Assembly (NCBI RefSeq): GCF_014117425.1
Contig: NZ_CP059725.1
Span: forward strand, 992,001-1,056,000
Direction: 5' to 3'
Length of the DNA: 64,000 bases
Source: Bartonella sp. HY038
GTDB taxonomy: Bacteria; Pseudomonadota; Alphaproteobacteria; Rhizobiales; Rhizobiaceae
The notes under the pieces are model-generated. The model was not told the DNA's origin. It searched no databases and saw nothing but the letters and a program-made list of their open reading frames with translations. Made by a program: the position numbers and the translations under genes. Below are positions 34,268-43,054 of this stretch, piece by piece; position 1 is the first letter of the stretch, and each line of letters opens with the position of its first letter.

Positions 34268-35443
34268 TCAAGAGCGTGTTAACCTTACAACCAATCTTAT
34301 TACAACTAAAGCGACATAAAGACCGAAAAAAAGTGCCATTGCCATGGAAAAACCGGTTACGGGAAAGATTTCCATAGCTTGTCCAATGATCGATGGGCCA
34401 ATTAGCATGCCAATACCATAGCAAAAAATGAAAGCGGCATTGGCGGCAGCAAGATCGCTGCCTTTGAGTCTTGCGCCCAATTGGGCAAGGCCAATGGTAT
34501 AAAGGCCAGCTGATACACCACCTAACACAAATAAAACCGCCCCAAGTAAATAATATTGGTGCATGATGAATGGCACGAGTAAAGTGCCAATAAGGCCAAT
34601 AGTTGCGCAACCAGCCAAAGCATAGCGGCGGTCGGGCAATCGATCGCTAATCATGCCAATTGGTACCAAAAGCAGCACATTGCCTAAAGCAAGCAGGGTT
34701 AAAAAATGTCCAGCTTGTGCTTCACTATAGCCCAAATTTAATGAAAATGGCGCGATTAAGGTAACCGCACCCAATTGAACTGCACCATAAACCAGCACCG
34801 CCATGGTTGATGTTGGCACTTTGAAAATGAATGGCAAAAATGGCACGTGTTCGCTGTCTTTGAAATTAGGGCTTAATTTCCATGCTGACATAATGGGAAT
34901 GCTGGCAAGGGCAATAAGCAAGCACCCAATACCAAACGGTAAAAAGCCTTTGCTGCCAACATAGGAAAACAAAATTGGCCCTAGCGAAAAACCAAAACCA
35001 AAAGTCGCCGCGTAAATGGCAAGAATCGCCCCACGCCTTGCTGGTGGTGCTGAACTATTGACCCAAAATTCTGATAGAATGAACATAATCGTCATAGCAA
35101 AATGCAAGGTAAAACGTAAGACAAACCAAACCCATAGGCCTTGAAAGCAATAAAACCCTAAAAAGCTTAAAGCGCCAACAATAAGCATGACTAAAATCGG
35201 TTTGATAACGCCAAACTTTAGCGCGATTCTTGATGTACAAGCTGCAGCAATAATGGTGGCCAGACCGCCAATCGTGCCGCTATAACCAATAATACTTTCA
35301 GAAATACCATGATCCAACATCATTGCTGAAATAAGGGGCGTTCCAAGGCCAATTGCTATACCTACCGCAGCAATTGTCGCTATCGCCGCAATGATTGCCC
35401 GCATGGCATGGTTTTCGCTTTGGCTATCCGTTTCAAAAGTCAT
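34268..35443 (-). CDS. MFS transporter (YcaD-like)
   Basis: A 391-residue major facilitator superfamily protein with about 12 transmembrane segments, of the YcaD/CynX-like type. Recognisable points are the first helix with IAIGLGTPLIS, loop 2-3 SRIALKFGVIKP, FWVNSSAPPARRGAILAIYAATFGFGFSLGP and the cytoplasmic MISDRLPDRRY after helix 8. The substrate cannot be read from sequence. Its ATG shares one base with the stop of the upstream Nudix gene, so the two are translationally coupled. Confidence 0.88.
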   Translation of the reverse strand: MTFETDSQSENHAMRAIIAAIATIAAVGIAIGLGTPLISAMMLDHGISESIIGYSGTIGGLATIIAAACTSRIALKFGVIKPILVMLIVGALSFLGFYCFQGLWVWFVLRFTLHFAMTIMFILSEFWVNSSAPPARRGAILAIYAATFGFGFSLGPILFSYVGSKGFLPFGIGCLLIALASIPIMSAWKLSPNFKDSEHVPFLPFIFKVPTSTMAVLVYGAVQLGAVTLIAPFSLNLGYSEAQAGHFLTLLALGNVLLLVPIGMISDRLPDRRYALAGCATIGLIGTLLVPFIMHQYYLLGAVLFVLGGVSAGLYTIGLAQLGARLKGSDLAAANAAFIFCYGIGMLIGPSIIGQAMEIFPVTGFSMAMALFFGLYVALVVIRLVVRLTRS

Positions 35444-36141
35444 CAGCTAAATCGAACCTTTCTATAATGTCTTCCCCTCGCGCTATAATATAGCGTAACT
35501 GGATGACATTGCTTTAACGCCATGTTGGGCGTTATGCAATCTTTTGTATCTTCGATGATTTGTTTTGTGATGTCATGAATTTTGATGTTTGGCGGCGAAA
35601 ACAAATCAACCCATTGTAAATCGGATAATTCGCTTGATGGCTGCATTTCATCAATATTGCTGATATTTTCTGCAAAGGTTAGAAAAAAACGTGTGTCAAA
35701 CCGCCTAATATGCCCAGTTGGGGTAATTGCCCTTGCAAAATAATGTAACGCAGATGGGTTAGGCAGCAGTTGTTGATTTTGAAAAATGCGCCAAGCAGAA
35801 TTTATGCTTTTTCTTAACGGAGCCTTGGATTTTACGCCAATAAGAAGCCCTGTTTCTTCTTGTGTTTCCCGAATGGCACATAATGCCAAAGCATTTGCGT
35901 GTTTTTCTGTAAAATGTTTTTTTTCACTGCGCATCAATTTTATATCACGCTCATGAAGTGACGTAGAGTAAAGATGGCTAAAATCAGCACGATCCATTTT
36001 GCCGCCGGGAAAAACATAAAAATCCGGCATAAATTTATGCGCTTCATGGCGTTTTCCCATCAATACAAATGGCTTGCCATCTATAGCTTTTAATATCAAT
36101 AATGTTGCCGCGGATTTGGGTTTTAAAATATGTTTTGTCAC
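35443..36141 (-). CDS. Nudix hydrolase
   Basis: A 232-residue Nudix protein. GGKMDR begins the Nudix box, and REXXEEXGU is present as RETQEETGLL, but about 40 residues (including LHERDIKLMRSEKKHF) separate them, so the box is split by an insertion as in the NUDT19-like group. The N-terminal VLMGKRHEAHKFMPDFYVFPGG and the C-terminal WVDLFSPP are typical. The substrate is unknown; a CoA or nucleoside diphosphate derivative is possible. It is coupled to the MFS gene downstream. Confidence 0.85.
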   Translation of the reverse strand: MTKHILKPKSAATLLILKAIDGKPFVLMGKRHEAHKFMPDFYVFPGGKMDRADFSHLYSTSLHERDIKLMRSEKKHFTEKHANALALCAIRETQEETGLLIGVKSKAPLRKSINSAWRIFQNQQLLPNPSALHYFARAITPTGHIRRFDTRFFLTFAENISNIDEMQPSSELSDLQWVDLFSPPNIKIHDITKQIIEDTKDCITPNMALKQCHPVTLYYSARGRHYRKVRFS

Positions 36142-36341
36142 TATTACTTCACTTGAAAAGACACAAAATTGTTATGCTAGTATAGCTAGGTTTAGCACTA
36201 TCAAGCATTGTTAATAATAAAACTTTTTTTAATATACAATTTTCCTTTATGTCTATATCGTTTACTTTAAACAAAAGACGGGTTCTTCAAATTTAATTAA
36301 AAGCATATTTTATATCATCTGTAACACTAATAAAGTGAGAA

Positions 36342-37307
36342 ATGATTATGCATAAAATATTAAAATTTTTTCAGATTTTTTCTATTATTGCTCTTGTTCT
36401 TGGTGGAACTATGACAAGCAATGCGCAAGAAAAATGTGAAATTTATTATCTTCCAACATTTGTTAAGTTAGATTTTGATAGTTTAAAACATATAAGTATG
36501 CATGAATTTATAAATGGAGAATTTCATTATTTAACTGTAGCGAGGAATGTGCAATATTTTGCTCCTTTGCCGCCGGAGTCGTTAAGCGCGCCGGAACTTC
36601 AAGCGGATAAACAAATCCTATCCTTAGCAGATGATGTGCAAGATATTTATTGGTTATATAGTATTGCTTCCTCAGCCGACGTTAAAACCTTTTTCTCTGG
36701 GCGGGATTCTGACTTTGCACCTTATATCTTAAGAGCTTTAAAACGCCAAAATTTGGATGATATGGCACAGCAGTTTGCTGTAGCAATGGAAGCTTTTGGC
36801 AATCGCTATCAAGGTTTTGATGCAAGCAAAAAAAGCATTGAAAACTTTCCAATTCCGGTTCGCGAGGCAGAGTTAGATGAAATTTTTCTTAAAATGATGG
36901 CGGCTTATGATAATAGTGCAGAAGGGCTAAAATATAAGGAGGCTGTATTAAAACAGCGAGAATTAACCAAGAAAATGGATGGCGATAAGATTAGCTATCA
37001 ACGCCGTAATATGATGGAATATAACCTTTTTTATCAACAGCATCCACAAACTTTCGCAGCACAAAAATTGTTAGATGGTTTTCCAAGCCAAAATGAAATT
37101 TATAAAGCAATTCATGACAAAATTTGCAATAATCCACATTTAAAGAATTGGTATTTAACCACCTATAACGCCCAAACCGATAGGGCTCATTTGTGGTTTA
37201 TACAGCATAAATTAATTACTAGAAAAAATGATCTAGGCCCGCGTGAAAGTTGGCCAATTTATTACCAAAATATCTTTTCGCTTTATTTATTTCAAATTGA
37301 AATTTGA
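36342..37307 (+). CDS. DUF4375/DMP19-like exported protein, cut by TGA
   Basis: First of three tandem paralogues. The 321-residue open frame begins with a signal peptide (residues 1-29) and a conserved KCEIYYLP. A first helical DUF4375-like domain follows (DDVQDIYWLYSIAS...DSDFAPYILRALKRQN...AMEAFGNRY), then a linker, then the start of a second such domain (RESWPIYYQNIFSLYLF). It stops at TGA 37305-37307, where the third paralogue has Ser (FSNGG here replaced by stop-NGG). The frame stays open beyond the TGA for the expected remainder (37308-37619), so the gene is a nonsense allele. The family assignment is by pattern only. The role is unknown, and the protein would be periplasmic. Confidence 0.8.
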   Translation: MIMHKILKFFQIFSIIALVLGGTMTSNAQEKCEIYYLPTFVKLDFDSLKHISMHEFINGEFHYLTVARNVQYFAPLPPESLSAPELQADKQILSLADDVQDIYWLYSIASSADVKTFFSGRDSDFAPYILRALKRQNLDDMAQQFAVAMEAFGNRYQGFDASKKSIENFPIPVREAELDEIFLKMMAAYDNSAEGLKYKEAVLKQRELTKKMDGDKISYQRRNMMEYNLFYQQHPQTFAAQKLLDGFPSQNEIYKAIHDKICNNPHLKNWYLTTYNAQTDRAHLWFIQHKLITRKNDLGPRESWPIYYQNIFSLYLFQIEI

Positions 37308-37619
37308 AATGGCGGCATAAGTCAATATTTTGATAATTCTTCATCTGAAGATTTTCCTAACCTTCTAAAGGCGTTAAAATCATCCAATCTTGATGACATC
37401 ATTCCTATTGTATTGGAAGCTAAATCTCTGCATGACAAATTCGAGCAATTAAAACAGAAATATAATACAAGCTCTCCCCAAGATTTTATAAAAGTGTACG
37501 AATTACTGCGGCAACCTTTGGCTGAATTTGAATCTAAAATTGATGTTGATGAGTTGGATGACAAAATTGATGATGCGTCTCTTAAACTTGTTTTGGATAA
37601 TAAGCTTATTTCACCGTAA
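37308..37619 (+). pseudogene. In-frame remainder of the first DUF4375-like gene
   Basis: Directly after the TGA at 37305-37307 and in the same frame, 103 codons continue as NGGISQYFDNSSSEDF, then LLKALKSSNLDD, EAKSLHDKFEQL and an acidic C-terminus with VDELDDKIDDA. This is the second half of domain 2 and matches the C-terminal part of the third paralogue (NGGFYQYFDHN, LLEAFKRLNLQN, KAKSLFEMVNKL). One base change (TCA to TGA) would account for the stop. It has no start of its own before codon 36. Confidence 0.85.
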
Positions 37620-37632
37620 TTTGGAGTAAACA

Positions 37633-38736
37633 ATGGGCTTCGACGCACCAAAAGAATGCACAATTTATTATGTGCCAAGGGACAAAACAGCCACTTTCGA
37701 TGATTTGAAGAATTTGAATTTTGATGAAACTATTCGAATTATATTTCATGATTTAGAGCATGAGCTTTTTACAGCGTATTTGGCAGCCTATAGATCTTTT
37801 GATAGAAGTAAAGCATCATTAAATAATTATAAAAGGTTAAGTGACGCTTTTTTTAAGCGGCCTGTTTATGAGCAGGACCTGTATTGGTTATATTGCATAG
37901 CTAGCCATCATAGCATCATTGACTATTTCCAATCATTAGCTTCAGATTTTGCGCCATATACACATCAGGCCTTAATTCGATTAAATATGCCGGAAATAGC
38001 TGATATATTTTATAAAATGATGCAAGTTTTTGGTAGCCGATATAGTGGTTTTAATCACAGGAATCGTAATCTAATAGGATTTTCGCAGGAGGATTCAGAT
38101 AATCTCCTAATTACCGGCAGTGAAGAAATGACCAATGATGTCATTGAGGAAGAAATTCGCAAGGCAGTTACACCTAGTGTTTTACAGGCATTTCCATGCT
38201 CTCAGCAACTCTATCATGCTATGCGATATTATATTTGTGTCAGTGCAGAGGCAAGAAATTGGTACGAAAAGCGGGTTGAAATTATTTCTGATAAGCAACG
38301 AGCCATCTGCTTAGTTCAAAATCTATTTAGCTTTGAGGAAAATTTAGGGGATTGGCAAAATTGGCCGCCGCCTTACCGATCTTTATATCTAATTGAAATA
38401 TTTTACACTGAAATTGTGCATGGCAGCCTTGGTCAGTATATTTATAATCAAAAAGGTGAAACCGTATTGGCGTTGTACAATGCATTGCGCCAAAACGGTC
38501 TTGATGAATTGGCTAAATTTATAGGCGATGCAAAGGAGCTTTATGAGCAATCACTTCAAAAAATTAGTAGATTTTATGTTGAGCGCGATAAAGACAAAAT
38601 AATATATTTTCATGATATCATGAAAACAGCACCTTTTTGCAATTTTGCCAAGGAAGTAAACATCCATGATTTATTGGATAAGCTCGACGATGCGATGACA
38701 GTCATTGCCCGTAACCATAATATTCTTCCACGTTGA
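37633..38736 (+). CDS. DUF4375/DMP19-like protein without signal peptide
   Basis: Second paralogue, 367 residues. It has the same layout: ECTIYYVPRDKTATFDDLK, first domain (EQDLYWLYCIAS...SDFAPYTHQALIRLN...MQVFGSRYSGF), linker, second domain (WPPPYRSLYLIEIFYTEIVHGSLGQYIYNQ) and an acidic tail DLLDKLDDAMTVI. The second domain's NGG is HGS here. It has no signal peptide. An in-frame TAA lies 6 nt upstream of the ATG and GGAG about 9 nt upstream, so the start is firm and the protein should be cytoplasmic. This implies loss of the export signal relative to its two neighbours. Confidence 0.85.
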   Translation: MGFDAPKECTIYYVPRDKTATFDDLKNLNFDETIRIIFHDLEHELFTAYLAAYRSFDRSKASLNNYKRLSDAFFKRPVYEQDLYWLYCIASHHSIIDYFQSLASDFAPYTHQALIRLNMPEIADIFYKMMQVFGSRYSGFNHRNRNLIGFSQEDSDNLLITGSEEMTNDVIEEEIRKAVTPSVLQAFPCSQQLYHAMRYYICVSAEARNWYEKRVEIISDKQRAICLVQNLFSFEENLGDWQNWPPPYRSLYLIEIFYTEIVHGSLGQYIYNQKGETVLALYNALRQNGLDELAKFIGDAKELYEQSLQKISRFYVERDKDKIIYFHDIMKTAPFCNFAKEVNIHDLLDKLDDAMTVIARNHNILPR

Positions 38737-38819
38737 CAATATCTTTGCTTTTTGGTTGGGGGGCGGTTGGTATTGTGTGAAAATTTGGAAATTCCATGTA
38801 AGGACGAAAGAGGTTCACA

Positions 38820-40028
38820 TTGAAAATTTTAAAAATATTAACACGTTTGCTTGCTGGGGCAGTCATTACAAGTGGCGGCAATTCCACTGCAATAGCCAAA
38901 GAATGCACCGTTTATTTTGATCCCAAAGGCGATGCCATTACCTTTGATGATCTAAAATATATTAGCCTTGATGAGGTGTTAAATTCTAAGTTCCTCATTT
39001 TAACCTGGGACATGCATGGCTATCATGTAAATCCTAGCTTTTACGATAGCAAATCCTCGCCGGTTGATAAAATATTGGCTTATCCTGACGATGTACAAGA
39101 TCTTTATTGGTTGTTTGTTTTCTTGCGTTATCAAACCGTGGTCAATTATTTTCAAAGTAATGATTCAGATTTTGCCCCCTATATTGGGCGCGCATTACAG
39201 CGGCAAAATATGGAGGATGCAGCACGCCAATTCCAGTCTGCTATGGACGCTTTTGGCAGCCGTTATCAAAAATTTGACCTATCAGAAAAAACCATTAAGC
39301 ATTTTATTATTCCGGCAACACAGGCTGAACTTGATCAGGCCTTTTTAAAAAAATTAGATGCTATGATGGGTGAGGAAGCCCCAGATGGTTATAAAAAAAT
39401 GCATTTAGACCAACGTAAGCAAGACAGAAAATTATTAGGTGGTGGCCCTGAAAAAGATACATTAGGCTATGCAGCGCTTTATGCAACGCATTCTGATGTC
39501 TTACAAGCAAAAGATAAGTTAAGGGATTTTCCAAAGCCTATCGCTATTTATAAGGCATTGCGCGATGATATTTGTCAAAATGACCAGCTTCATGATTGGT
39601 ACAAAAACATTGTTCAATCGATGACAGAAAAGGATCGCATGAATATTTTGGCTGAAAATTTATTTCTTCTTCAAGATAGGTTTGGCACAAGAGAAAATTG
39701 GCCAAGCGTTTATCGTGATATTTTTGCACTCAATTTATTTTCGGCACAATTTTCAAATGGCGGATTTTACCAATATTTTGATCATAATCCAAATGAAGTT
39801 CCAGCATTGCTTGAAGCGTTTAAAAGGTTAAATTTACAAAATCTTGAAGCTGATTTGCAAAAAGCAAAATCCTTATTTGAAATGGTAAATAAGCTTTCTC
39901 CTAACGAGTTAGAAAATGGTAATCCATTAGATGATTTTGAGGATAAGCTCGATTTTACTAAAATTCTTGACGAAGTTGATGGTGCGATGCTGAAGCTAGC
40001 AAAAGAGAATAACATTCTACCTCAGTAA
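38820..40028 (+). CDS. DUF4375/DMP19-like exported protein, intact
   Basis: Third and most complete paralogue, 402 residues. A signal peptide spans residues 1-26 (hydrophobic LLAGAVITSG, cleavage near AIAK). ECTVYFDPKGDAITFDDLK follows, then domain 1 (DDVQDLYWLFVFL...DSDFAPYIGRALQRQN...AMDAFGSRY), a linker rich in Lys/Asp, and domain 2 (RENWPSVYRDIFALNLFSAQFSNGGFYQYFD, LLEAFKRLNLQN). The acidic tail is FEDKLDFTKILDEVDGAML. The NGGFYQYF motif is the best match to DUF4375. The start is a TTG at 38820 with GAGG about 7 nt upstream. Function unknown. Confidence 0.87.
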   Translation: MKILKILTRLLAGAVITSGGNSTAIAKECTVYFDPKGDAITFDDLKYISLDEVLNSKFLILTWDMHGYHVNPSFYDSKSSPVDKILAYPDDVQDLYWLFVFLRYQTVVNYFQSNDSDFAPYIGRALQRQNMEDAARQFQSAMDAFGSRYQKFDLSEKTIKHFIIPATQAELDQAFLKKLDAMMGEEAPDGYKKMHLDQRKQDRKLLGGGPEKDTLGYAALYATHSDVLQAKDKLRDFPKPIAIYKALRDDICQNDQLHDWYKNIVQSMTEKDRMNILAENLFLLQDRFGTRENWPSVYRDIFALNLFSAQFSNGGFYQYFDHNPNEVPALLEAFKRLNLQNLEADLQKAKSLFEMVNKLSPNELENGNPLDDFEDKLDFTKILDEVDGAMLKLAKENNILPQ

Positions 40029-40052
40029 TTCTATCGCTTATCAGCGTTTTAA

Positions 40053-41096
40053 TTATTGGGCAATTATGCGGCTTTCATTTGCAACTTTAGCCAATTGGTT
40101 GATTGCTTGTTCTAAACTGAGTACATTGGTGTAACCAATAATTAAGCCATATTTATCTGGTTCACCTTTATACCAATGAGATAGGGGAGATACCTTTAAC
40201 CCGTGTTGCTGCCATAATTGTGCTAGCTCTTGATCTTTGCTGCCTCGTTTAAGGTAAGCAATTATGTGCATGCCACCATCGGTTAATTCTATATTCAAGA
40301 TATCACCTAAAACTTGCTTTAATGCAGCCTCCATAATAACGCGGCGTTGTTGATAAAGCGTACGCATTTTTTTAATATGGCGATAAAAATGGCCTTCACT
40401 CATAAATAAAGAAAGTGCTTTTTGGGTAAAAAGCGGCATACCACTTTCATAGATGTTACCAATTTGCATAAATAGCTTTATTGTTTCTTTCGGCATAACG
40501 ATATAACCAGCTCGCAAGGCAGGCATTATGGTTTTGCTAAAGGAACCAGTATAAATAACTCTATCATGGGCATCGATACTCTTTAATGCGCTAATTATTT
40601 TTCGTTTAAAGTGAAATTCGCCATCATAGTCATCTTCAATAATCCAACTTTTTTTATTAGAAGCCCATTCTAATAGTCGCTGTTTTCGTGGTAAAGACAT
40701 TGAAACAGTTGTTGGGCTTTGATGGGTCGGTGTGACAAGCGCAAATTTTGCATCACTATGATGCTTTAATAGATAGTCTGTGTTTAGCCCCTTATCATCT
40801 ATTGGAATATAATGAAGTTTTGGGATAATAAGTTTGAGGAATTGGGCCGCAATAAAATATCCCGGATTTTCAAAAAGAACCGTATCATTAGGTGTGGATA
40901 GTACCGCAAAAATAAGCCGCAAGCTGGCGCGGTAACCACTTGTTATAAAAATTTGCTCGGGCGAGCAGTTAAGCCCGCGAGAGATATTAAGATAGCTGGC
41001 AATATTCTCTCTTAATGGCTGATAGCCCATAAAAGGTGGCATGATAAGATCATTTTCATCCATATTACGGGCAGCTTTTTTCAAAGTAAAAGCCAT
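40053..41096 (-). pseudogene. MocR-type regulator, aminotransferase part (frameshifted)
   Basis: The 347-codon frame is the aminotransferase-fold half of a MocR/PdxR-type regulator. It has the family's PLRENIASYLNISRGLNCSPEQIFITSGYRASLRLI, NPGYF, TPTHQSPT and the PLP-lysine region GSFSKTIMPALRAGY. It starts inside the C-terminus of the wHTH half in a different frame. The join is at about 41081-41096, where the minus strand has an A6 run followed by a T-rich stretch; a single-base shift would make one protein of about 460 residues. It is divergent from the GNAT operon it probably regulates. Confidence 0.85.
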
Positions 41097-41434
41097 TTTT
41101 TATAAGGAAAGCTTTCAAGGGCTGGAATTCCAAGGCGCAAATGCTTGGGCTGTAAGTTGCTTTTTTGTGCAAATTCACTCTTTGCGCCATTAGTGTTGCT
41201 ATTTAAAGCAACTTCAATATTAAGTTCTGGGTTCACAAAGGTGCCTTTAGCGCCTTGGCTTACCAAATAGCCTTCCCCAACAAGTATTTCATAAGCGGAT
41301 TCTACAGTTTTACGCGCGACATTCAATCCACTTGCTAAAACTCTAATCGATGGTACGCGATCGCCCGCTTTAAGATTGCCAATACTGATTTCATTTCGGT
41401 ACCGCTCATAAATGCTTTTGTAGCCCACAATCAT
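41081..41434 (-). pseudogene. MocR-type regulator, GntR wHTH part (frameshifted)
   Basis: The 117-codon frame is a GntR-type winged helix: IYERYRNEISIGNLKAGDRVPSIRVLASGLNVARKTVESAYEILVGEGYL, followed by VSQGAKGTFV. It runs into the conserved FPYKKW, where the aminotransferase half should follow, but ends after three more codons. The remainder is in the next frame (40053-41096). As annotated it would make a repressor-like domain without its effector-binding fold. A sequencing slip is possible. Confidence 0.85.
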
Positions 41435-41524
41435 GTCCTACCTTTTTTTGTTTATTTTGGCTCTTTCTAATATGACTTAGCAGTTTAAATTGTGCAACTC
41501 AATTTAGCTTAAACCGGAGAAATT

Positions 41525-41950
41525 ATGGAAATAACGCATTACAGCACACCAAGCGAAATATTGCAGTGCTTTGATCTAATGGCGATGTTGCGTCCAAAAC
41601 TATTAAGCAAAGAAGCTTTTATAGTACAGGTGCAACGTCAACAGCAGCAAGGCTTTGCATTGCTGGGAGTTACTAACGCTACCATGCCGCTCGCATTAGC
41701 TGGATATCGTTGTATGGAAAATTTTATCCATGGTCGATTTTGTTATGTCGATGATCTTATCACCCATCCAACTGTACGCGGGCAGGGATATGCAAAAAAT
41801 TTACTCGATAGTTTGGGTAAACTGGCCTTTGAAAAAGGGTGTCAGCGTATGGTGCTTGATACTGGATTGACGAATAAAACAGCGCAAAAATTTTACCAAC
41901 AGGTGGGCTACACAACCACTGGTTATCATTTATATCGCGATTTATATTAA
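41525..41950 (+). CDS. GNAT family N-acetyltransferase
   Basis: A 141-residue acetyltransferase. Acetyl-CoA-binding motif A is RGQGYAKNLLDSLG (about residues 91-104), preceded by the strand YVDDLITHPTV. The substrate is unknown. AAACCGGAG lies about 6 nt before the ATG. It is the first of three genes (GNAT, azoreductase, AhpD-like) with 10-bp and 2-bp gaps. It is divergent from the MocR-type regulator, suggesting that this operon is the regulator's target. Confidence 0.88.
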   Translation: MEITHYSTPSEILQCFDLMAMLRPKLLSKEAFIVQVQRQQQQGFALLGVTNATMPLALAGYRCMENFIHGRFCYVDDLITHPTVRGQGYAKNLLDSLGKLAFEKGCQRMVLDTGLTNKTAQKFYQQVGYTTTGYHLYRDLY

Positions 41951-41960
41951 AGGAAAAATT

Positions 41961-42572
41961 ATGAGATTACTTCATATTAAGGTGAGCCAAGATTTAGAAG
42001 GATCTTCATCTCGCAAAGCATCAGCGTATTTGGTGGATAAACTAAAGGCTTTACACCCCGATATTTCGGAAACAATTATTGATTTAGCCCAAAATCCACT
42101 GCCGCACTTAGATAGTGCAATGATAACGGCCATTTTTACCAAACCTGAACTGCGTAACGAGGCGCAGTGGGAGCTGCTAAAAAAATCAGATGAATTGGTT
42201 GATCAGCTATTTAACCATGAGATTTTGGTTATTTCCTCGCCAATCTATAATCTTGGATTACCATCGGTGTTAAAGGCATGGTTTGACCATGTAACACGGG
42301 CGGGTCGCACTTTTGCATTTAAATCGGATGGTACCAAAACAGGGTTGGTTCATAACTTAAAAGCCTTTTGTGTTTTTTCAACTGGAAGTATTTTTTCAGC
42401 CGGCCCCTTTGTAAGTGATGACCAGTTTACGCCATATGTGCGGGTCGCCTTGGAGTATATAGGCATTAAAGATTTAACGAATTTTCGTATTGAGGGTACT
42501 CAAGACGCAAAAACACGTGACACGGCTTTAGCCCATGGCTTGAAGCAAATTGATCATTTTTTTGAGGTGTAA
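41961..42572 (+). CDS. azoR: FMN-dependent NADH-azoreductase/quinone reductase
   Basis: A 203-residue flavodoxin-fold reductase of the AzoR family. It shows the N-terminal LLHIKVSQDLEGSSSRKAS (FMN phosphate site), SSPIYNLGLPSVLKAWFDHVTRAGRTFAF in the middle, and the STGSIFS loop. AzoR reduces quinones and azo compounds with NADH and FMN, in the cytoplasm. AAGGAAAAA precedes the ATG. It is second in the operon with the GNAT and AhpD-like genes, a set that recalls reactive-electrophile protection. Confidence 0.9.
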   Translation: MRLLHIKVSQDLEGSSSRKASAYLVDKLKALHPDISETIIDLAQNPLPHLDSAMITAIFTKPELRNEAQWELLKKSDELVDQLFNHEILVISSPIYNLGLPSVLKAWFDHVTRAGRTFAFKSDGTKTGLVHNLKAFCVFSTGSIFSAGPFVSDDQFTPYVRVALEYIGIKDLTNFRIEGTQDAKTRDTALAHGLKQIDHFFEV

Positions 42573-42574
42573 CT

Positions 42575-43054
42575 ATGTCAAATCGAGTAAATTTATTCAA
42601 AACCCAGCCAGTATTAGCAAAAGCTATGACTGAGCTGTCCAATAAAACAAGTGGTTCAAGCATGGATAAGACATTGAAGCATCTTGTTTATATCTATAGT
42701 TCCCAGCTCAATCATTGTGCATTTTGTCTCGATATGCATGTTAAAGAAGCTAAAATCGATGGCGAGCGTGAATTGCGTTTGTTGCATATTCCAATTTGGC
42801 GTGAATCTACACTGTTTTCAGAGCGGGAAAAGATAGCCTTAGAGTTGACTGAGCAACTCACTAGGCTTGGTGAAAATGGTATTGAAGACGAATTATATTC
42901 AAAAATGCAATTGCACTTTAATGACGATGAAATAGGCCAGTTAATCTTTGTAATAGCTGTGATTAATAGTTGGAACCGGCTTATGATTGCGTCCAAAATG
43001 ACGCCGGGTTCCTTAGACCACTTATATGGTTTGGATAAGGCAAATTTAAAATAA
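42575..43054 (+). CDS. AhpD-like carboxymuconolactone decarboxylase family protein
   Basis: A 159-residue protein of the AhpD/CMD fold. The redox motif CAFC (HCAFCLDMHVKEA) is intact, with the His two residues downstream of the second Cys shifted to DMH as in the AhpD-like core. The following helices (REKIALELTEQLTRLGENGI) fit the family. It is probably a peroxidase-linked thiol protein. It starts 2 nt after the azoR stop. A strong terminator ends the operon. Confidence 0.88.
   Translation: MSNRVNLFKTQPVLAKAMTELSNKTSGSSMDKTLKHLVYIYSSQLNHCAFCLDMHVKEAKIDGERELRLLHIPIWRESTLFSEREKIALELTEQLTRLGENGIEDELYSKMQLHFNDDEIGQLIFVIAVINSWNRLMIASKMTPGSLDHLYGLDKANLK

What the first reader, a model, noticed from the sequence alone, without database searches (positions are those of the whole stretch)
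36342..40028. Three tandem double-domain DUF4375/DMP19-like proteins, two of them exported
Three adjacent paralogues share one layout: an (E/K)CxxY start, a (F/D)DDLK segment, a first helical domain with DxQDxYWL and SDFAPY, a linker, then a second domain with WPxxYR and NGGFxQYF, and an acidic tail. The second domain is close to the DUF4375 (DMP19) pattern; the first looks like a diverged copy. Genes 1 and 3 have signal peptides, which is not how the DNA-mimic DMP19 protein is placed. Such clusters of divergent copies are typical of immunity or envelope-defence genes, but no toxin gene is adjacent, so the role is open.
Basis: partly seen in the sequence, partly recalled or inferred. Interest (0 to 1): 0.72.

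Follow-up and report, generated by a model that had tools for sequence, protein, structure and literature searches.

The report
Exported double-DMP19 gene trio
Three neighbouring genes encode exported proteins built from two copies of a domain best known from a DNA-mimicking protein, and most of two of them seems to have been swapped for a distant version; the layout is real and also found in other bacteria, but its job is still unknown.

Summary

Corrections: gene 1 is cut by an in-frame TGA at 37305-37307, before its NGG motif; gene 2 lacks a leader here, though its sister-genome counterpart has one; the layout is not private to this cluster. Among 120 listed relatives, mostly Hyphomicrobium-type, all 109 of full length have a hydrophobic N-terminus and 117 of 120 end in Cys, usually with a second Cys near the mature N-terminus: a predicted disulfide staple.

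Between the two sister genomes, flanks and gene 3 differ at about 3% of bases, but 36443-38696 (most of genes 1 and 2) at 39%, with sharp edges: probable allele replacement. No toxin or secretion partner was found nearby. I read these as periplasmic binding or inhibitor proteins; the target is unknown. New variant of a known kind.

The parts
36342..37307 (+). Gene 1: 321-aa ORF, leader plus first DMP19-like domain; interrupted in the second domain
   Evidence: no Pfam hit for the ORF
36342..36428 (+). Gene 1 leader (29 codons, signal-peptide-like), nearly identical to that of the sister genome
   Evidence: cleavage point inferred by eye
37305..37307 (+). In-frame TGA in gene 1
   Evidence: the sister genome's gene has no stop inside
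37308..37619 (+). Rest of the gene 1 frame behind the stop (103 codons and TAA), with NGGISQYF
   Evidence: (DMP19 match of 44.8 bits with one TGA inside)
37633..38736 (+). Gene 2: 367 aa, two DMP19-like domains, no leader here
   Evidence: (53.5 bits)
38820..40028 (+). Gene 3: 402 aa, TTG start, leader plus two DMP19-like domains, intact
   Evidence: (47.0 bits)
38820..38897 (+). Gene 3 leader (26 codons); low model confidence there
   Evidence: cleavage point inferred by eye
38904..38906 (+). Cys29 codon of gene 3 (Cys near the mature N-terminus; present in 46 of 48 rows)
39573..39575 (+). Cys252 codon of gene 3 (interdomain Cys; 7 of 48 rows, the six gene 1-3 type rows and L057)
39696..39995 (+). 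C-terminal DMP19 domain of gene 3, residues 293-392
36443..38696 (.). Replaced block: 38.7% mismatch to the sister genome inside, 3.3% outside (34268-43054)

Best explanation
Each gene encodes, or once encoded, a Sec-exported protein made of two fused DMP19-fold helical domains. A disulfide from a Cys near the mature N-terminus probably staples the chain: to the last residue in Hyphomicrobium-type relatives, to an interdomain Cys in this lineage. I think it is a stable periplasmic binding or inhibitor protein whose tandem fold acts as a built-in dimer that grips a partner. In this Bartonella-like lineage it was duplicated into a three-gene array, and most of genes 1 and 2 was exchanged for a diverged allele by recombination, with edges just behind gene 1's leader and in the last codons of gene 2. 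In this genome probably only gene 3 still gives a complete exported protein. Shown by sequence: tandem homology, leaders, Cys pattern, sharply bounded divergence. Inferred: periplasmic location, the disulfide, the binding function, recombination as the cause, and loss of function of genes 1 and 2.
Confidence: 0.45

Rival explanations
1. Orphan immunity array: each protein neutralises one variant of a toxin that enters the periplasm, and allele exchange tracks changing toxins.
For: Three tandem copies plus a fourth elsewhere in the sister genome; genes 1 and 2 exchanged while gene 3 and flanks are not; extracytoplasmic leaders.
Against: No toxin or secretion gene next to the trio or shared between loci; no VipB in the genome; in Hyphomicrobium-type genomes one match per genome with stable neighbours. 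The search for a two-partner-secretion domain was uninformative, since nothing rang in the controls either.
Confidence: 0.2
2. Exported DNA mimics: the tandem DMP19 folds copy the charge of DNA outside the cytoplasm and block a nuclease or a DNA-uptake protein.
For: Same fold as Neisseria DMP19, which competes with DNA for NHTF and HU (PMC5722371, abstract and discussion read). Proteins of this lineage are acidic: net -11 to -20 for the complete ones.
Against: Of 109 full-length relatives the median net charge behind residue 35 is -6; 37 lie above -5 and 9 at or above zero. No mimic residues were mapped.
Confidence: 0.12
3. Decaying array without present function.
For: Gene 1 stop, gene 2 without leader, and the GntR/aminotransferase gene next door also split in this genome.
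Against: Gene 3 is intact and 92.3% identical to its counterpart with dN/dS 0.30; all three genes are open in the sister genome.
Confidence: 0.15
4. Genes 1 and 2 evolve fast by point mutation under diversifying selection, with no replacement.
For: Protein identity to the sister genome is only 46.9-49.5%.
Against: Synonymous divergence is about tenfold that of the flanks (1.04-1.41 against 0.02-0.14), dN/dS is 0.29-0.44, and the edges are sharp. Point selection on the protein does not raise dS.
Confidence: 0.05

Closest known systems
Neisseria DMP19 (PDB 3vjz, 3wur; Pfam PF14300, formerly DUF4375)
   Same: Domain family of the C-terminal half by sequence and best solved fold; the N-terminal half is a diverged copy.
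   Different: DMP19 is a chain of about 166 residues acting on the DNA-binding proteins NHTF and HU (PMC5722371). Here there are two domains in one chain with a leader and a paired Cys pattern.
Tandem DMP19/DUF4375 proteins of Hyphomicrobium-type bacteria (database names: 'DMP19 family protein', 'DUF4375 domain-containing protein')
   Same: Same length, leader, two domains, N-terminal Cys and LP-ending tail.
   Different: Single gene per genome in the nine tandem-bearing genomes found; the last residue is Cys, which this lineage has lost in favour of an interdomain Cys. About 20% identity to gene 3.
Single-domain DUF4375 proteins, for example P. aeruginosa HP1 (204 aa)
   Same: PF14300 domain.
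   Different: HP1 is reported without a signal peptide (PMC12864544, passages read); single-domain.
Polymorphic-toxin immunity gene arrays (recalled class)
   Same: Tandem diverged paralogues, allele exchange.
   Different: No toxin or delivery gene found nearby; relatives are single-copy with stable neighbours.

Membership tests
PF14300 (DMP19 / DUF4375) domain family | Match over the curated cut-off of 25 bits | tested here: met
   Gene 2 53.5, gene 3 47.0 bits; the gene 1 ORF before the stop has no hit, the frame across the stop 44.8 bits in the genome search.
PF14300 (DMP19 / DUF4375) domain family | N-terminal half belongs too | tested here: met
   By profile comparison of halves and separate hits in relatives; not by plain BLAST of the window proteins.
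PF14300 (DMP19 / DUF4375) domain family | DMP19 fold | tested here: met
DNA-mimic proteins of the Neisseria DMP19 type | Binds HU or a transcription factor in place of DNA | not testable with these tools
   Needs binding assays.
DNA-mimic proteins of the Neisseria DMP19 type | Strongly acidic, DNA-like surface | tested here: inconclusive
   Net charge only: -11 to -20 in complete proteins of this lineage; median -6, with 9 of 109 at or above zero, in relatives. No surface map.
DNA-mimic proteins of the Neisseria DMP19 type | Single-domain protein without a leader, as DMP19 | tested here: not met
   Two domains and a leader in genes 1 and 3 and in the sister genome's counterparts; that DMP19 itself lacks a leader is recalled.
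Polymorphic-toxin immunity genes | Toxin gene adjacent or conserved in the neighbourhood | tested here: not met
   Neighbours of the window and 13 clustered loci. ORF calling was crude in GC-rich loci, so a small toxin gene could be missed there.
Polymorphic-toxin immunity genes | Neutralises a toxin | not testable with these tools
   Needs assay.
Known anti-phage defence proteins (PADLOC) | Convincing model hit | tested here: inconclusive
   Four proteins scanned: two without a hit, two weak ones (oligonucleotide cyclase 18.1 bits, E 2.7e-4, for the sister genome's gene 1; Cas3 14.8 bits, E 0.0062, for gene 2), judged chance and not followed.

The most novel reading that the evidence does not exclude
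An extracytoplasmic branch of the DMP19 family: disulfide-stapled built-in dimers used outside the cytoplasm as decoys that catch nucleic-acid-binding proteins, such as incoming nucleases or DNA-uptake factors, and kept in this lineage as an allele-exchanging array because attacker and decoy co-evolve.
Probability: 0.1. Interest if true: 0.78.

Novelty: new variant of a known kind. Interest (0 to 1): 0.47.

Why it matters
The DMP19/DUF4375 family is named after one DNA mimic that acts on DNA-binding proteins. An exported, tandem, Cys-paired branch shows that the name cannot simply be carried over as a function, and it poses a compact question: what does this fold bind outside the cytoplasm? 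The sharply bounded replacement inside one gene array suggests that genes 1 and 2 change where gene 3 does not. On print: library searches for DMP19 or DUF4375 (9 papers), 'DMP19 family protein' (1 paper) and DNA mimic protein with periplasm and signal peptide (2 papers) listed no title or abstract start about an exported or tandem form. Of the nine papers, one was read in abstract and discussion, five in passages only, and three not opened; the library lacks most subscription journals, and the primary DMP19 paper was not held.

Tried and rejected
Search with gene 3 alone found only itself (1 protein of 4250 candidates), and a genome-contig scan found nothing; both understated the family. The six-row profile found two proteins. 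The nine-row profile with Hyphomicrobium-type rows found 165, of which 120 were listed. I first took the proteins for genus-specific (2 of 151 family genomes) and dropped that. The counterparts of genes 1 and 2 of the sister genome did not appear in the protein database lists, which I cannot explain.

Mobility: gene 3 has no match in the plasmid collection. For relative P0017 there is no match in phages and one in plasmids, a Variovorax tandem protein. Surveys: any match in 8 of 397 order genomes, 5 of 398 phylum genomes and 3 of 289 class genomes, own genome included; the others are mostly short single-domain stretches.
Full report
WHAT IS THERE. The window holds three same-strand genes: gene 1 at 36342-37307 (321-aa ORF), gene 2 at 37633-38736 (367 aa) and gene 3 at 38820-40028 (402 aa). 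Upstream on the other strand are NUDIX and MFS genes; downstream are a GntR/aminotransferase gene in two pieces, an acetyltransferase, a flavodoxin-like reductase and a carboxymuconolactone-decarboxylase-like gene. Genes 2 and 3 hit PF14300 (DMP19, formerly DUF4375) in their C-terminal halves at 53.5 and 47.0 bits (cut-off 25); the gene 1 ORF has no hit. A domain search of the genome reports a 44.8-bit DMP19 match there with one TGA inside.

ORGANISM. The assembly has 3,602,772 bases in 4 contigs. One other genome of the genus is held, G026. A homologue on a contig of 3,194,890 bases, the length of G026 contig 1, is named 'DMP19 family protein [Bartonella sp. HY329]', so this is a Bartonella-like lineage. 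A passage of PMC11570991 puts the strain HY038 at the root of that genus. The strain of the window itself is not established.

THE SISTER GENOME. G026 has three genes in the same place: 411 aa without a stop, 399 aa with a leader, and 402 aa. It also has an unlinked fourth copy of 413 aa with a leader, in which both halves pass PF14300 separately (67.0 and 30.6 bits). The window genome shows no counterpart of the fourth copy beyond matches to the trio and two weak matches. So the stop of gene 1 and the missing leader of gene 2 are probably losses here; an assembly error was not excluded.

A REPLACED BLOCK. Between the two genomes, gene 3 and seven flanking genes have dS 0.02-0.14 and protein identity of 92.3-99.2%. 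Gene 1 (the two pieces measured apart) and gene 2 have dS 1.04, 1.41 and 1.34 and identity of 49.5, 48.5 and 46.9%. Over 34268-43054 the best single block is 36443-38696, with 38.7% mismatch inside and 3.3% outside. Its left edge is a few codons behind gene 1's leader; its right edge is in the last codons of gene 2. dN/dS is 0.29-0.44 inside the block and 0.30 in gene 3; among the seven flanking genes it is 0.04-0.20 except for one at 0.59. So the block is not a case of runaway positive selection. In trees of the halves, genes 1 and 3 pair with their positional counterparts; gene 2 does in the C-half (94/94) and is unresolved in the N-half. The simple reading is replacement by a diverged allele of the same array. 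Which genome received it cannot be told from two genomes. A 29-base identity links the leader end of gene 1 here with the leader end of gene 2 in the sister genome.

A WIDER FAMILY. A nine-row profile found 165 homologues, 120 of them listed. The organism names given there are Hyphomicrobium, but most records have none. Of these 120, 109 have 395-440 residues and are not gene 1 type; all 109 have a hydrophobic N-terminal segment by a crude hydropathy test. 117 of 120 end in Cys, and 109 of 120 also have a Cys at positions 40-110. Of the 11 without both, eight are short records (287-342 aa), P0067 and P0111 have aberrant tails, and P0003 is a gene 1 allele of this lineage. In the 48-row alignment the N-terminal Cys column holds Cys in 46 rows. 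The C-terminal column holds Cys in 40. The interdomain column holds Cys in 7: the six gene 1-3 type rows and L057. The fourth copy of G026 lacks all three. Such pairing is what a disulfide would give; it was not measured. In the family of G238, called Hyphomicrobium-type because one of its contigs has the length of a named Hyphomicrobium record, 11 of 103 genomes matched, nine over most of the profile, one match each. In the order, 8 of 397 had any match, with tandem forms in G000, G238, G462 and G381. A Variovorax plasmid carries a tandem protein ending in ILPR. Other DMP19-domain proteins are more widespread: PF14300 occurs in 17 of 151 genomes of the window's family.

NO PARTNER FOUND. ORFs of 13 loci were clustered. 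Apart from one pair of ORFs in L057 and L073, the only group shared between families is the tandem-DMP19 gene; other groups are synteny within a genus. The ORF picking was crude and chose wrong frames in some GC-rich loci, so small genes may be missed. Eight window neighbours scanned by Pfam are ordinary. VipB is not found in the genome; the two-partner-secretion search was uninformative.

HOW IT MAY WORK. I commit to an exported periplasmic binding or inhibitor protein, a built-in dimer of two DMP19 folds held by a disulfide. Leaders, tandem homology and Cys pattern are seen in sequence; location, bond and binding are inferred. The DNA-mimic function of Neisseria DMP19 (PMC5722371, abstract and discussion read) is a lead only: relatives are not uniformly acidic (median net charge -6; 9 of 109 at or above zero), though complete proteins of this lineage are at -11 to -20. 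The immunity reading fits the array and the exchange but lacks a toxin.

VERDICT. The proteins are a variant of the known DMP19 kind; the unusual points are export with paired cysteines and the sharply bounded replacement across two adjacent genes.

Noticed in passing
window 36421-36449 and L010:6820-6848: 29 identical bases between the end of gene 1's leader here and the end of gene 2's leader in the sister genome: a possible trace of recombination between leaders.
   Followed up: partly
window 40053-41434, minus strand: The GntR/aminotransferase gene is split into two overlapping ORFs (347 and 117 aa), where the sister genome has one 460-aa frame: a second broken gene next to the array, or an assembly error.
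   Followed up: no
L011:5001-6242, minus strand: Fourth tandem-DMP19 gene of the sister genome, without the paired Cys, next to an exported esterase-like ORF; closer to the Hyphomicrobium-type branch in the C-half tree.
   Followed up: partly
L057:7100-7307: A tRNA-like stretch lies directly upstream of a tandem-DMP19 gene whose leader-like segment has no ordinary start codon; seen by eye, no tRNA scan run.
   Followed up: no
window 36242-36340 against L010 upstream of 5467: About 100 bases of gap in the alignment just upstream of gene 1: the sister genome is longer there.
   Followed up: no
L079:5641-6711: Variovorax megaplasmid tandem-DMP19 gene beside a site-specific integrase gene; suggests occasional mobility outside Alphaproteobacteria.
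   Followed up: no
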